Shown here piece by piece: positions 20,016 through 24,765 of a DNA stretch of 64,000 nt. The stretch is from Gammaproteobacteria bacterium (lineage in GTDB: Bacteria > Pseudomonadota > Gammaproteobacteria > Pseudomonadales > Pseudohongiellaceae). Made by a program: the position numbers and the translations under genes. The notes below the pieces were generated by a model, which had not been told where the DNA came from, did not search any database, and worked only from the letters and a program-made list of their open reading frames with translations. Positions within the stretch are counted from its first letter, which is position 1. Every line of letters starts with the position of its first letter. Location of the stretch: assembly GCA_018661465.1 (NCBI GenBank), contig JABJIC010000017.1:1-64000 (forward strand), written 5' to 3'.

Positions 20016-21800
20016 ATGAAGCCTACCAATATAGCCGACCCGAATTACTTTCATAAAGTAGTTGATTGTCAGTGGGCCTGCCCCGCTCACACTCCAGTTC
20101 CCGAATACATCAGACTTATCGCTGAGAAGCGCTATTCTGATGCTTATATGGTCAATTGGCAGTCCAATGTTTTCCCAGGGATTCTGGGTAGAACCTGTGA
20201 CCGCCCTTGCGAGCCAGCCTGCCGTCGAGGCCGCGTTGAAGAAGAGCCCGTGGCCATCTGTCGACTCAAGCGAGTTGCCGCAGACTACAAATCCGACATC
20301 AGGGATCGACTTCCTGAAATTCCCAAGAAGAAAAATGGCAAGCACATCGCTCTTATTGGTGCCGGCCCGGCATCATTAACCGTTGCCAGAAACCTGCTGC
20401 CTCTTGGCTATGAAATCACCCTCTATGAAAGAGACCCGGTAAGTGGTGGCGCAATGCGCACCCAAATACCTCGCTTCCGTCTGCCCTTAGAGGTGCTGGA
20501 AGAAGAATTACATTACGTTCTGGATATGGGGATTAATTGCCGCTTTGGTGAAGATGTCACCAGCATGAAATCTATTCTCGCTGAAGGCTATGACGCTGTC
20601 TTTGTTGGAACAGGCGCCCCACTGGGAAAATGGCTCGACCTACCCGGACACGAGGAAGCCAAAGAGAATTTGCATACAGGAATCGAATGGCTAGCAAGTG
20701 TTGCCTTCGAGCACATCGAAAGCATAGGTAAGAAGGTTTTAGTTCTGGGCGGCGGTAATACCGCTATGGACTGCTGTCGCACATCCAAACGGCTCGGCGG
20801 CGAAGAAGTTAGTGTTGTCGTTCGCAGTGGTTTCGATGAGATGAAAGCATCTCCATGGGAAATTGAAGACGCCATTGCCGAAGATATCCCAGTGCTTAAC
20901 TTTCATGTTCCCAAGCGATACATCATTGAGAATGGCAAGCTTGTAGGAATGGAGTTTGAAAAAGTACGCAAGGAAATCGACGAGAATGGTCGACGCCAAC
21001 TTATCCCAACCGGCGATGATCCGGTTATCCTTCCTTGCGACGACGTGATCTGCGCCATCGGTCAAGAGAACAGCTTTCCGTGGATAGAAAGAGATTTAGG
21101 CATTGAATTCGACCAATGGGAATTGCCCACTCTTGTTAACTCCCGATTTCAATCTACCAATGAGAAAGTTTTCTTTGGTGGTGATTCCGCACTAGGGCCT
21201 GACAATATTATTAGAGCTGTAGCCCATGGGCATGAGGCTGCTCTTTCCATACATCTGCTATGTGAAAAGCAGGATCTTGATGATCGGCCACATCCCATAA
21301 TGGATATTCAAGGCCAGAAAATGGGCATCCATCAATGGTCATATTCAAATGACATCAGCGCCGATTTGAGATACGCCGTACCCCATGCCGCAAAAGAGCA
21401 AACTCTTAACGACATAAACCTTGAAGTTGAGCTAGGCTTTGATGAGCAGTTAGCATTCGAAGAAACCAAGCGCTGCCTTAACTGCGACATCCAAACAGTT
21501 TTTACCGACAAGCTTTGTATCGAATGCGATGCCTGCGTCGACATTTGCCCTACGGACTGCATCAGCTTCACTCAGAATGCTGAAGAGGATACCTTACGCA
21601 AAGACCTCCTCGCCCCGGCGGAGAACAAGGAACAAGACTTATACGTCTCTGGCGCGCTAACCACAGGACGCATAATGGCGAAGAACGAAGACCTCTGCCT
21701 ACACTGCGGTCTTTGCGCCGAGCGCTGCCCAACAAGTGCATGGGATATGCATAAGTACCTTCTTAATACCGCAAAGGCAGTAGACGCATGTCCGAAATAA
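20016..21800 (+). CDS. GltD-like FAD/NAD(P)H oxidoreductase with C-terminal double [4Fe-4S] ferredoxin domain
   Basis: Residues 1-100 resemble the iron-sulfur domain of the glutamate synthase small subunit (cysteines 18, 22, 61, 65, 69). The FAD loop GAGPAS is at 115-120 and the NAD(P)H loop is VLGGGNTAMDCC, around residue 245. The C-terminus adds a bacterial-ferredoxin module with two CxxCxxCxxxC clusters (501/504/507/511 and 561/564/567/571). It should transfer electrons between NAD(P)H and low-potential iron-sulfur centres. Its stop overlaps the next gene by 13 bases, so it is presumably the electron-transfer subunit of that enzyme. Two small hairpins (19949-19962 and 19971-19984, the second with a GAAA loop) lie just upstream in the untranslated leader. 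Confidence 0.88.
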   Translation: MKPTNIADPNYFHKVVDCQWACPAHTPVPEYIRLIAEKRYSDAYMVNWQSNVFPGILGRTCDRPCEPACRRGRVEEEPVAICRLKRVAADYKSDIRDRLPEIPKKKNGKHIALIGAGPASLTVARNLLPLGYEITLYERDPVSGGAMRTQIPRFRLPLEVLEEELHYVLDMGINCRFGEDVTSMKSILAEGYDAVFVGTGAPLGKWLDLPGHEEAKENLHTGIEWLASVAFEHIESIGKKVLVLGGGNTAMDCCRTSKRLGGEEVSVVVRSGFDEMKASPWEIEDAIAEDIPVLNFHVPKRYIIENGKLVGMEFEKVRKEIDENGRRQLIPTGDDPVILPCDDVICAIGQENSFPWIERDLGIEFDQWELPTLVNSRFQSTNEKVFFGGDSALGPDNIIRAVAHGHEAALSIHLLCEKQDLDDRPHPIMDIQGQKMGIHQWSYSNDISADLRYAVPHAAKEQTLNDINLEVELGFDEQLAFEETKRCLNCDIQTVFTDKLCIECDACVDICPTDCISFTQNAEEDTLRKDLLAPAENKEQDLYVSGALTTGRIMAKNEDLCLHCGLCAERCPTSAWDMHKYLLNTAKAVDACPK

Positions 21801-23644
21801 TCCAGTCATCCAAGGTGAGCACAATCACCAAAACCAATGACTTTGTGGTCAAGTTTGCCAATGTTAACGGCTCTGGTTCAGCATCTGCAAATAGCATGTT
21901 TGCCAAAGCCATTTTCCGCATGGGCATTCCTGTTAGTCCACACAATATATTCCCGTCCAACATCCAAGGTCTGCCAACCTGGTATGAAGTACGAATAAAC
22001 GAAGACGGTTATCTTGGTCGCCGCGAAGGTGTGGACCTGATGATCGCCATGAATGAGCAGACAATAGGTAAAGATATCGACTCGGTTCTTCCAGGTGGAT
22101 ATGTTCTTTATGACTCATCAAAAGTTTTGGCTAACGAGCTTCTTCGCGATGATGTTAATTATTTGCCGATTCCGCTTAAGGACATTTGCCTGAGGGAATT
22201 TGAGAAACCCGCTCAGAGGCAGCTTTTTAAAAACATAGTCTATGTTGGCGCTCTGTCTGCTTTTCTAAACATTGATTTCAAAGTATTAACTGGCATGGTG
22301 AGTGACCAGTTTAAGGGGAAAGAAAAACTTATCCCTCCTAATGTCCATGCGCTGGAATTGGGGCATCATTATGCAACTGAAAATTTTGCATGCCCGCTTG
22401 CACTTAGATTGAAAAGCAGCAACAAAAACAAGAATAAAATACTAATTGATGGCAACACAGCTATTGGATTGGGCTGCGTTTACGGCGGCGCAACTGTCGC
22501 CTCGTGGTATCCGCTTACCCCTTCCACTTCTGTAGTAGACAGTTTTGGAAAATACTGCAAGCGCCTGCGCATTGACGCCGGCACTGGAAAACGTAAGTAC
22601 TCAATAATCCAAGCTGAAGACGAATTGGCAGCGATTGGCATGGCTATCGGTGCCGGGTGGAACGGAGCAAGAGCCTTTACGGCAACCAGCGGCCCCGGCA
22701 TATCCCTTATGCAAGAATTTCTGGGATTAGCTTACTTCTCAGAGGTACCAGTTGTACTGTTTAACATTCAACGCACCGGCCCTTCTACTGGAATGCCAAC
22801 CCGCACTCAGCAAGGCGACTTAATAAGCTGCGCCTACGCCTCCCACGGCGACACTAAACATGTCTTGCTATTCCCTGCCACGCCAAAAGAATGCTTCGAA
22901 GACGCTGCGTCAGCCTTTGATATAGCCGACAGGTTACAGTCTCCTGTGATTTTAATGAGCGATCTCGAGCTCGGCATGAACGAACAATCTTGTGAAGACC
23001 TACATTGGGATGATAAGCGCGACTATGATCGGGGCAAAGTTCTCAACGCTGAGCAACTTGAAGAAATTGAACGATATGGTCGCTACCTCGATTCAGATGG
23101 CGATGGTATTCCTTATCGCACCTATCCAGGCACTCATGAGTCCAAGGGAAGCTACTTCACCCGAGGCAGCTCACACGATGCCTATGCCGCTTATACTGAA
23201 GACGGCAATGTCTATGCTGAAGTGATGGACCGCTTAACTCTTAAGATGAAAACTGCTTTAAATTTTATCCCAGAGCCAGTTATATCAAGCAGTGATGGAA
23301 ACAAGCTGGGACTGGTCTATTTAGGAACTACCCAAAGCGCCATTCAGGAAGTACTTGATGGCTTGGCTAAGAAAGGCGTTTCAATCGACACTATGAGAAT
23401 CCGGGCTTTCCCATTTCATGACAGCGTTATCGACTTCATAAACAATCATGATCTGGTTTATGTAATCGACCAGAATAGAGATGCACAGCTGAAGAGTCTT
23501 CTCAAAATTGAATGCAATGCTTCTGAAGACAAAATGCATTCTATCCTTAACTACAATGGCGTATTGATTACAGCAGAGCAAATAGAAACAGCAGTGCTTG
23601 ATTCGATGTCTGAGATAGAGAACAGCGAAGGAGTTTCGGCCTGA
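21788..23644 (+). CDS. 2-oxoacid:acceptor oxidoreductase, fused gamma-alpha subunit (KorA type)
   Basis: The 618-residue protein has an N-terminal gamma domain (about 15-195: FANVNGSGSASANSMFAKAIFRMG) fused to the alpha pyrimidine-binding domain (from about 215: GLGCVYGGATVASWYPLTPST and DELAAIGMAIGAGWNGARAFTATSGPGISLM). This arrangement is found in KorA-type 2-oxoglutarate and related ferredoxin oxidoreductases, which decarboxylate a 2-oxoacid to an acyl-CoA. It overlaps the GltD-like gene. The substrate (2-oxoglutarate, pyruvate or branched-chain oxoacids) cannot be assigned from motifs I can see. Confidence 0.9.
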   Translation: MSEIIQSSKVSTITKTNDFVVKFANVNGSGSASANSMFAKAIFRMGIPVSPHNIFPSNIQGLPTWYEVRINEDGYLGRREGVDLMIAMNEQTIGKDIDSVLPGGYVLYDSSKVLANELLRDDVNYLPIPLKDICLREFEKPAQRQLFKNIVYVGALSAFLNIDFKVLTGMVSDQFKGKEKLIPPNVHALELGHHYATENFACPLALRLKSSNKNKNKILIDGNTAIGLGCVYGGATVASWYPLTPSTSVVDSFGKYCKRLRIDAGTGKRKYSIIQAEDELAAIGMAIGAGWNGARAFTATSGPGISLMQEFLGLAYFSEVPVVLFNIQRTGPSTGMPTRTQQGDLISCAYASHGDTKHVLLFPATPKECFEDAASAFDIADRLQSPVILMSDLELGMNEQSCEDLHWDDKRDYDRGKVLNAEQLEEIERYGRYLDSDGDGIPYRTYPGTHESKGSYFTRGSSHDAYAAYTEDGNVYAEVMDRLTLKMKTALNFIPEPVISSSDGNKLGLVYLGTTQSAIQEVLDGLAKKGVSIDTMRIRAFPFHDSVIDFINNHDLVYVIDQNRDAQLKSLLKIECNASEDKMHSILNYNGVLITAEQIETAVLDSMSEIENSEGVSA

Positions 23645-23709
23645 CCGCTGAATAACTTTCAAAAACAAAAAGCCCTTTTTAATTAAAAAGACGCAATGAG
23701 CAAGAGCCA

Positions 23710-24765
23710 ATGAGCTATATAAGAAAACCTAAATTCAGTCACCCAGGTCTACAGACCAATGACTTGGGGCTAACCAGAAGAGACTACGAAGGTACTCTGA
23801 CTACTCTCTGTGGTGGATGCGGGCATGATTCCATTAGCGCCGCAATTATTCAGGCGGCGGCAGAAATGTCTCTCGAGCCTCACCGTGTAGCAAAGATTTC
23901 CGGCATCGGCTGCTCTTCAAAGATTCCATCTTACTTCCTTAGCAAAGCCCACGGCTTTAATTCAGTCCACGGCCGAATGCCATCGGTTGCTACCGGCGCC
24001 AACATAGCTAATCAAGATTTACATTACATTGGTATCTCCGGTGATGGGGACAGCGCTTCAATAGGATTAGGTCAGTTCTGTCACATCGTTAGGCGACAGG
24101 TAAACATGCTTTACATCGTCGCTAACAATGGCACATACGGCTTAACCAAAGGGCAGATGTCAGCAACTGCCGACATGGGCTCGAGAACAAAGTCAGGTGA
24201 AGAAGCCCAGTTTGAAAATATAGACATGGCGACCTTGGCAATCGAATTAGGTGCCAGCTTTGTGGCGCGGAGCTTTTCTGGAGACAAGAAGCAACTCGTA
24301 CCTCTCTTGCAGGCAGGTCTTTCACATAAGGGATTTGCTTTTATCGACGTGGTTTCGCCCTGCGTTACTTTTAACAACACTGATCTTTCCAGTCATGGTT
24401 ACAAAAACACCTGGGAAAATTATGTGGCATTGAGCGATGTTGACTTCGTGCCAATGCGCGATGAAATAACTACCAACTATGAGCCTGGCGAGGAGAAAGA
24501 CATTACTCTTCACGATGGATCAGTAATTCATCTGCACAAGACTGATGATAGCTATGATCCAACCGATAAAGACCAAGCCCTTGGTCACATAAGCAAGTAT
24601 AAGAAAAAGGGAAAGATTGCTACTGGCTTACTCTATATCAACCAGTCGACTTCCGACTTGCATGAGACTCAATATACGATAGATCGACCTCTGAATAGCC
24701 TTGGCGCCGATGAGTTATGTCCTGGCAATGGCGCCCTGAACGGAATCAATGACACTTTTCGATAA
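23710..24765 (+). CDS. 2-oxoacid:acceptor oxidoreductase, beta (ThDP, [4Fe-4S]) subunit (KorB type)
   Basis: The 351-residue subunit binds thiamine diphosphate through GDGDSAS (111-117) with the trailing NN at 139-140. Four cysteines, C34 and C37 (LCGGCGH), C68 (GIGCSS) and C218 (SPCVTF), match the single cluster site of KorB. The gene lies 65 bases after the alpha gene. A five-codon reading frame (ATG at 23696) ends in a TGA that overlaps this ATG (ATGA at 23710-23713), which may couple translation. No rnf, ferredoxin or delta-subunit gene follows. Confidence 0.92.
   Translation: MSYIRKPKFSHPGLQTNDLGLTRRDYEGTLTTLCGGCGHDSISAAIIQAAAEMSLEPHRVAKISGIGCSSKIPSYFLSKAHGFNSVHGRMPSVATGANIANQDLHYIGISGDGDSASIGLGQFCHIVRRQVNMLYIVANNGTYGLTKGQMSATADMGSRTKSGEEAQFENIDMATLAIELGASFVARSFSGDKKQLVPLLQAGLSHKGFAFIDVVSPCVTFNNTDLSSHGYKNTWENYVALSDVDFVPMRDEITTNYEPGEEKDITLHDGSVIHLHKTDDSYDPTDKDQALGHISKYKKKGKIATGLLYINQSTSDLHETQYTIDRPLNSLGADELCPGNGALNGINDTFR

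What the first reader, a model, noticed from the sequence alone, without database searches (positions are those of the whole stretch)
20016..24765. Three-gene 2-oxoacid oxidoreductase wired to a GltD-like, NAD(P)H-dependent iron-sulfur flavoprotein
A KorA-type gamma-alpha fusion and a KorB-type ThDP/[4Fe-4S] subunit are joined (13-base overlap at the first boundary) to a GltD-like FAD protein carrying its own double [4Fe-4S] ferredoxin domain. Usually these enzymes hand electrons to a free ferredoxin. Here the flavoprotein probably transfers them directly to or from NAD(P), giving a 2-oxoacid:NAD(P) oxidoreductase or, in reverse, NAD(P)H-driven carboxylation. No separate ferredoxin gene lies nearby.
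Basis: partly seen in the sequence, partly recalled or inferred. Interest (0 to 1): 0.7.

Follow-up and report, generated by a model that had tools for sequence, protein, structure and literature searches.

The report
NADPH-linked 2-oxoglutarate oxidoreductase operon
Three neighbouring genes most likely build one enzyme that splits 2-oxoglutarate, a central metabolite, and passes the electrons straight to NADP; this enzyme type is known from an aromatic-degrading bacterium but recurs in many others, and in part of one bacterial group it appears to stand in for the usual enzyme of this step.

Summary
korC (GltD-like flavoprotein, 20016-21800), korA (gamma-alpha fusion, 21788-23644, 13-base overlap) and korB (23710-24765) form one + strand cassette. 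It is conserved: of 80 relatives, 66 have enough downstream sequence and all 66 have korC-korA-korB in this order. In a class sample of 274 genomes, the 22 with the KorC C-terminal domain are exactly the 22 with this KorA type, beside it; 43 such KorAs form one clade (100/100). Sixteen cysteines, enough for four [4Fe-4S] clusters, are kept in 101 KorC rows, one X apart.

The kind is known: Azoarcus evansii 2-oxoglutarate:NADP+ oxidoreductase has a GltD-like subunit (PMC10134865 passage), and Aromatoleum EbN1 carries korCAB. I read this as a new member working oxidatively; NAD(P)H-driven carboxylation is energetically poor. Main addition: in one order of small genomes, two families (31 genomes) lack 2-oxoglutarate dehydrogenase E1 and 20 of them have KorC with KorA; the other two (30) have E1 in 29 and KorC in none. 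This points to 2-oxoglutarate; 11 of the 31 have neither. Activity was not tested.

The parts
20016..21800 (+). korC: GltD/NfnL-like FAD, NADP(H) and iron-sulfur flavoprotein, 594 aa, 66.5 kDa
20067..20261 (+). N-terminal iron-sulfur part of KorC: C18, C22, C61, C65, C69, C82 (with C487 and C490 enough thiols for two [4Fe-4S] clusters; the grouping is inferred from NfnL and dihydropyrimidine dehydrogenase)
   Evidence: invariant in 28 rows and in 101 rows, one X at C82; alignment to NfnL-type chains
20337..21260 (+). FAD and NAD(P)H binding domains of KorC (two Rossmann folds)
   Evidence: PF07992; model pLDDT mostly 60-95 here
20823..20846 (+). KorC R270-K277, aligned with dihydropyrimidine dehydrogenase R364-R371 (NADPH 2'-phosphate contacts, recalled)
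   Evidence: alignment; R270 and K277 in 101 of 101 rows, S271 in 96 of 101
21474..21485 (+). cysteine pair C487/C490 (RCLNC), after the flavin domain; in NfnL-type chains the same motif stands at the N-terminus
21516..21728 (+). built-in dicluster ferredoxin domain of KorC, C501/504/507/511 and C561/564/567/571
   Evidence: PF12838
21788..23644 (+). korA: gamma-alpha fusion subunit of a 2-oxoacid oxidoreductase, 618 aa; overlaps korC by 13 bases
   Evidence: PF01558 and PF01855; TIGR03710 above its cut-off
23710..24765 (+). korB: thiamine diphosphate and [4Fe-4S] subunit, 351 aa; C34, C37, C68, C218
   Evidence: PF02775; cysteines in 89 of 89 rows

Best explanation
korCAB encodes a three-subunit 2-oxoglutarate:NADP+ oxidoreductase. 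KorA and KorB bind 2-oxoglutarate, CoA and thiamine diphosphate, release CO2 and succinyl-CoA, and pass two electrons, one at a time, to the single [4Fe-4S] cluster of KorB. KorC docks its built-in dicluster ferredoxin domain onto KorB in place of a free ferredoxin, relays the electrons through up to four [4Fe-4S] clusters to FAD, and FAD reduces NADP+ as a hydride. It does the chemistry of the 2-oxoglutarate dehydrogenase step without lipoamide and yields NAD(P)H, NADPH favoured. Shown here: gene set, conservation, cofactor and active-site residues, one clade, and mutual exclusion with 2-oxoglutarate dehydrogenase in one order. Inferred: complex formation, electron path, NADP over NAD, direction, 2-oxoglutarate as main substrate.
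For: Trio contiguous in 66 of 66 loci with over 3.6 kb downstream; korA also in all 12 loci with 100-3600 bases; 2 of the 80 had no room. 22 of 274 class genomes have KorC and the same 22 have a KorA of at least 52% identity beside it; the 40 other genomes with a KorA match have only matches of 43% or less and no KorC. The 43 KorC-linked KorAs are one clade, 100/100, with all 21 unlinked ones and 5 references outside. 16 cysteines kept in 101 KorC rows, one X at C82; KorB ligands 89 of 89. KorA T244 and R329 (substrate carboxylate in Sulfolobus OFOR) 90 of 90; KorB K71, equivalent of Lys49b whose K49I mutant lost 2-oxoglutarate activity (PMC5020499 passages), 89 of 89. In the order of G176, OGDH E1 is in 0 of 31 genomes of the two families in which KorC occurs (20 of 31), and in 29 of 30 of the other two (28 over cut-off, 1 fragment), where KorC is in 0 of 30. 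SucB over cut-off is in 28 of 61, all in those other two families. Succinyl-CoA synthetase beta is in 58 of 61. Precedent: GltD-like KGOR-alpha of Azoarcus evansii (PMC10134865); EbN1 korCAB lies inside the clade.
Against: No activity, complex or cofactor was measured. KorA S461 replaces Asp468 of Sulfolobus OFOR, whose D468A mutant also lost 2-oxoglutarate activity; 2-oxoglutarate-specific H. thermophilus KorAB has Leu there and lacks an equivalent of Lys49b, so neither residue is a safe marker. The own genome has OGDH E1, as do 21 of the 22 KorC genomes of the class sample, so this is no simple replacement here. In the order where exclusion is seen 11 of 31 genomes have neither OGDH E1 nor KorC, among them 7 of the 17 that are at least 90% complete; if the two KorC families are sisters, as in the SAR86 paper, the pattern may be one event. 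The third basic residue of the NADPH site is Ser in 96 of 101 rows. The predicted structure is unreliable in the iron-sulfur parts (mean pLDDT 65.1).
Confidence: 0.75

Rival explanations
1. KorC is a three-way hub: electrons from 2-oxoglutarate, or from NADPH, also go through its ferredoxin domain to a free low-potential ferredoxin or flavodoxin, so that the main product is reduced ferredoxin.
For: PMC8163825 says, citing the A. [quoted passage not shown] PMC11582366 assumes that the SAR86 enzyme raises reduced ferredoxin (passage). KorC has a dicluster ferredoxin domain.
Against: No ferredoxin gene is in the cassette, and no flanking family recurs in more than 7 of 44 distant loci. PF06050, which I recall as holding benzoyl-CoA reductase subunits, has no match in the own genome, with the control ringing in 2 of 14 genomes. 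2-oxoacid oxidoreductases without a KorC neighbour are common (21 rows), so KorC is not needed for ferredoxin reduction as such.
Confidence: 0.15
2. The substrate is another 2-oxoacid (branched-chain, aromatic or pyruvate), and the enzyme serves amino acid or acyl-CoA catabolism.
For: OGDH E1 is present in the own genome and in 21 of 22 KorC genomes of the class sample; EbN1 copy beside acyl-CoA dehydrogenases; KorA groups, weakly (93/76, long-branch warning), with broad-specificity Sulfolobus enzymes.
Against: Mutual exclusion with OGDH E1 and SucB in the order of G176; conserved KorB K71 and KorA T244 and R329 fit 2-oxoglutarate but do not prove it.
Confidence: 0.15
3. The complex is electron-bifurcating or confurcating like NfnSL: the KorC flavin splits electrons between a high- and a low-potential acceptor.
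For: KorC is homologous to NfnL-type chains (E 7.3e-69 for 5jca_L).
Against: No NfnS-type gene in the conserved cassette (rest of the genome not searched for one). The position of KorC C82 is glycine in the NfnI-type chains 5jca_L and 5vj7_A and cysteine in 100 of 101 KorC rows, the other being X, so a cluster near the flavin is probably ligated differently. 2-oxoglutarate to NADP+ is already downhill (recalled potentials).
Confidence: 0.05
4. NAD(P)H-driven reductive carboxylation of succinyl-CoA (CO2 fixation).
For: Ferredoxin-linked relatives run this way in the reverse citric acid cycle (PMC6315080 passages).
Against: Uphill by about 0.15-0.2 V from NADPH (recalled potentials). A search for ATP citrate lyase in the own genome gave nothing, but its 14 controls were silent too, so that test is inconclusive.
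Confidence: 0.04

Closest known systems
2-oxoglutarate:NADP+ oxidoreductase (KGOR) of Azoarcus evansii (Ebenau-Jehle, Boll, Fuchs 2003; paper not held, content recalled; cited in PMC10134865 and PMC8163825, passages seen)
   Same: 2-oxoacid oxidoreductase with a GltD-family subunit that PMC10134865 calls KGOR-alpha; the window's predicted masses 66.5/68.0/38.0 kDa resemble the three subunit sizes that I recall.
   Different: Here in a genome without a PF06050 match and with OGDH E1; the A. evansii sequence was not compared.
korCAB of Aromatoleum aromaticum EbN1 plasmid 2 (NC_006824.1)
   Same: Same three genes in the same order; KorC 60%, KorA 58%, KorB 55% identical; inside the KorA clade.
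   Different: On a plasmid typed as conjugative, next to acyl-CoA dehydrogenase genes; I know of no assay.
2-oxoglutarate:ferredoxin oxidoreductase KorAB (PDB 6n2n, recalled as Magnetococcus; Thauera aromatica; Mycobacterium tuberculosis)
   Same: gamma-alpha fusion plus ThDP/[4Fe-4S] subunit.
   Different: No KorC. With M. tuberculosis extracts no NAD+ or NADP+ reduction by 2-oxoglutarate was measurable (PMC2773412 passage).
NfnL, GltD and dihydropyrimidine dehydrogenase flavoproteins
   Same: FAD and NADPH domains and N-terminal iron-sulfur domain.
   Different: KorC has its RCLxC pair and an extra dicluster ferredoxin at the C-terminal end, and C82 where two NfnI-type chains have glycine.
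AadN of Rhodopseudomonas palustris (PMC9973337; section 7 and passages read)
   Same: Nfn-type flavoprotein that can take the place of KorAB in supplying aromatic ring reduction.
   Different: A fused Nfn, not joined to KorAB; the strains listed there have AadN or KorAB, not both.

Membership tests
2-oxoglutarate:NADP+ oxidoreductase (A. evansii type, KorCAB) | KorA and KorB core encoded together with a GltD-like flavoprotein | tested here: met
2-oxoglutarate:NADP+ oxidoreductase (A. evansii type, KorCAB) | Common descent with the characterised enzyme | tested here: inconclusive
   A. evansii sequence not available; the EbN1 relative falls inside the clade
2-oxoglutarate:NADP+ oxidoreductase (A. 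evansii type, KorCAB) | NADP+ rather than NAD+ binding residues | tested here: inconclusive
   R270 and K277 invariant; the third basic residue is Ser in 96 of 101 rows
2-oxoglutarate:NADP+ oxidoreductase (A. evansii type, KorCAB) | 2-oxoglutarate-dependent NADP+ reduction by the purified complex | not testable with these tools
   needs an enzyme assay
2-oxoacid:acceptor oxidoreductase superfamily | POR gamma and POR_N alpha domains, ThDP subunit with four cluster cysteines | tested here: met
Electron-bifurcating NfnSL | NfnS-type small subunit encoded beside the large one | tested here: not met
   the conserved unit is korC-korA-korB only; no flanking family recurs in more than 7 of 44 loci; NfnS elsewhere in the genome not searched
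Four-subunit KorABCD of reverse TCA clusters | separate gamma and ferredoxin subunits | tested here: not met
   gamma is fused to alpha and the only ferredoxin domain is in KorC
2-oxoglutarate dehydrogenase complex | E1, E2 and E3 with lipoyl domain | tested here: not met
   other domains; an OGDH E1 lies elsewhere in the genome

The most novel reading that the evidence does not exclude
KorCAB is an air-tolerant stand-in for 2-oxoglutarate dehydrogenase in aerobic bacteria: two whole families of streamlined bacteria (most likely SAR86) have given up the dehydrogenase and, where the step is kept, run it through KorCAB, so that their citric acid cycle makes NADPH rather than NADH or, as published, reduced ferredoxin.
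Probability: 0.45. Interest if true: 0.6.

Novelty: new member of a known kind. Interest (0 to 1): 0.38.

Why it matters
[quoted passage not shown] if those are the KorCAB seen here, the product is more likely NADPH, which would change that argument and the redox budget of abundant ocean bacteria.

Tried and rejected
Structure: an AlphaFold model of KorC from 28 relatives gave pLDDT below 50 in most iron-sulfur parts, so cluster geometry could not be tested; no fold search was run. Flank analysis found no recurring partner gene in 44 distant loci (a first attempt failed in its BLAST step and its flank list is void). The paper on the A. evansii enzyme is not held; searches for more on it gave the citations used and nothing fuller. 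Searches for korABC, for Bradyrhizobium, for KorC with NADPH and for KorAB with GltD listed no paper that I recognised as describing the KorCAB trio; only the listed titles and abstract starts were seen, so this is no proof that none exists. ATP citrate lyase test inconclusive. A first, stricter count of korA directly downstream gave 61 of 66, because in five loci a far-upstream start was chosen or the KorA match was broken; by tblastn position it is 66 of 66. For the residue counts, rows cut short (under 560 aa for KorC and KorA, 330 for KorB) were dropped, leaving 101, 90 and 89 of at most 102. The SAR86 labels there sit among Pseudohongiella rows in the tree and may be misnomers.
Full report
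What is there. On the + strand lie korC (20016-21800, 594 aa), korA (21788-23644, 618 aa) and korB (23710-24765, 351 aa); korC and korA overlap by 13 bases and 65 bases separate korA and korB. Pfam finds the dihydropyrimidine-dehydrogenase-type 4Fe-4S domain, a pyridine-nucleotide/FAD domain and a dicluster ferredoxin in KorC; POR gamma and POR_N alpha domains in KorA; the ThDP C-terminal domain in KorB. The best solved relatives are NfnA/NfnL and related flavoproteins for KorC, and 6n2n and the Sulfolobus OFORs for KorA and KorB. The upstream neighbour is a cation-efflux transporter; the downstream one, on the other strand, looks like a TerB/DnaJ protein (label from memory).

Conservation. 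Of these 80, 66 have more than 3.6 kb downstream and all 66 have korA and korB there in order; 12 have 100 to 3600 bases and all 12 have korA; 2 have no room. Labels include Pseudohongiella, Halioglobus, Bradyrhizobium, Neoroseomonas, Stella, Tahibacter, Burkholderiales and the Bacteroidota genus Cognataquiflexum. In an even sample of 274 genomes of the window's class, 22 have the KorC C-terminal domain (E at most 1e-10) and 62 have a KorA match. Exactly the 22 with KorC have a KorA of 52% identity or more, next to KorC in each (in G161 KorC is split over two contigs); the 40 genomes that have only weaker KorA matches, 43% or less, have no KorC. I fetched 20 of the 21 other korCAB loci and found all three genes in all 20; 20 unlinked KorA loci, two of them second copies in KorC genomes, have korB but no KorC match. 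A maximum-likelihood tree of 69 KorA rows puts the 43 KorC-linked ones in one clade (100/100) on a long stem, with the 21 unlinked ones and 5 reference chains outside. The nearest group, with the Sulfolobus OFORs, is weak (93/76) and the program warns that long branches meet. So KorC is a fixed companion of one OFOR clade.

Residues. In 101 KorC rows the 16 cysteines C18, C22, C61, C65, C69, C82, C487, C490, C501, C504, C507, C511, C561, C564, C567 and C571 are kept (one X at C82); in 89 KorB rows C34, C37, C68 and C218 are kept. By homology with NfnL-type chains, the RCLNC pair at 487-490, which there stands before the N-terminal domain, most likely completes one N-terminal cluster. That gives up to five [4Fe-4S] clusters and one FAD per trimer (inference; the model is too poor to test it). 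In the NADPH domain KorC R270, S271 and K277 align with dihydropyrimidine dehydrogenase R364, K365 and R371, which I recall as 2'-phosphate contacts. R270 and K277 are invariant; S271 is Ser in 96 of 101. NADP is thus favoured over NAD, not proven. In KorA the YP(I/L)TP threonine T244 and R329 are in 90 of 90 rows; S461, equivalent to Sulfolobus Asp468, is Ser (43), Thr (46) or Ala (1). KorB K71 (Lys49b) and L145 (Leu123b) are in 89 of 89. In Sulfolobus the K49I and D468A mutants lost 2-oxoglutarate but kept pyruvate activity, yet H. thermophilus KorAB, specific for 2-oxoglutarate, has neither residue (PMC5020499, passages). The residues fit a 2-oxoglutarate or broad enzyme but do not decide it.

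Genome context and substrate. The own genome also has OGDH E1, another KorAB without KorC, and a third POR-domain gene, probably indolepyruvate oxidoreductase by size (label from memory); PF06050 has no match there. Of the 22 KorC genomes of the class sample 21 have OGDH E1 (E at most 1e-50), against 190 of the other 252. The one without, G176, led to the strongest evidence. Its order was sampled with 61 genomes of 0.7 to 1.8 Mb in four families. In families f165 and f173 (31 genomes) OGDH E1 is in 0 and KorC in 20; in f174 and f34 (30 genomes) OGDH E1 is in 29 (28 over cut-off, 1 fragment) and KorC in 0. SucB over cut-off is in 28, all in f174 and f34; two f173 genomes have weaker E2 matches. 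Succinyl-CoA synthetase beta is in 58 of 61. Each of the 20 KorCs has KorA beside it; I looked for korB in three of these loci and found it in all three. Fisher tests give 1.8e-8 for KorC and 1.4e-16 for E1, but families are not independent, and if the two are sisters, as in the SAR86 paper, one event suffices. In G176, G276 and G281 sucC lies 13 to 17 kb from korCAB, a loose link at best. Eleven of the 31 have neither enzyme, among them 7 of the 17 at least 90% complete. G277, a single-contig genome, keeps a whole korB but only a 139-aa ORF with a korA match and no korC, so the cassette seems to be lost there, and the step is not indispensable in all.

Literature. The precedent is 2-oxoglutarate:NADP+ oxidoreductase of Azoarcus evansii (Ebenau-Jehle et al. 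2003, not held). PMC10134865 places its 'KGOR-alpha' in the GltD/NfnB/DsrL family (passages), and PMC8163825 credits an A. evansii NADP-dependent oxidoreductase with regenerating reduced ferredoxin (passages). EbN1, a relative, has korCAB on plasmid 2. The passages I saw do not mention a KorC. M. tuberculosis KOR shows that such an enzyme can complete an aerobic cycle and be stable in air; NAD(P) reduction was not measurable there (PMC2773412, passages).

Mechanism and verdict. Electrons from 2-oxoglutarate (about -0.5 V, recalled) fall through the KorB and KorC clusters to FAD and NADP+ (-0.32 V, recalled); the reverse is unfavourable. The worthwhile additions are the strict KorC-KorA pairing across 274 genomes and the exclusion pattern in one order, which predicts NADPH rather than reduced ferredoxin as the product there. 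None of this was tested at the bench.

Noticed in passing
L129:14882-16885, L130:3374-5401, L132:3738-5756: KorC in three of the small genomes has an N-terminal extension of about 70-80 residues; Pfam DUF6538 matches it above its cut-off in L132, below it in L130, and is not listed for L129. Function unknown.
   Followed up: partly
L133:16288-17709 (-): In G287, which has no KorC, KorA or OGDH E1 match, a similar N-terminal extension is fused to an IscS-like class-V aminotransferase, near the isc-like genes beside which korCAB sits in relatives.
   Followed up: partly
L131:13536-15017: In the single-contig genome G277 a whole korB and a 139-aa ORF with a korA match remain and korC is not found: a decayed copy, unless the assembly is at fault.
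   Followed up: partly
L085:4814-7734: The window's genome has a second KorAB (KorA 27% identical) without a flavoprotein beside it, next to a propeller-like gene and a PhoX-like gene (labels from memory); substrate unknown.
   Followed up: no
L088:105-9594: On Aromatoleum plasmid 2 korCAB lies beside two acyl-CoA dehydrogenase genes, a CBS-domain gene and another FAD-dependent oxidoreductase gene, which hints at a different physiological setting.
   Followed up: no
families f165 and f173: 11 of 31 genomes have neither OGDH E1 nor KorC, so their citric acid cycle may be open at 2-oxoglutarate unless an unrecognised enzyme acts or the genes fall in assembly gaps.
   Followed up: no
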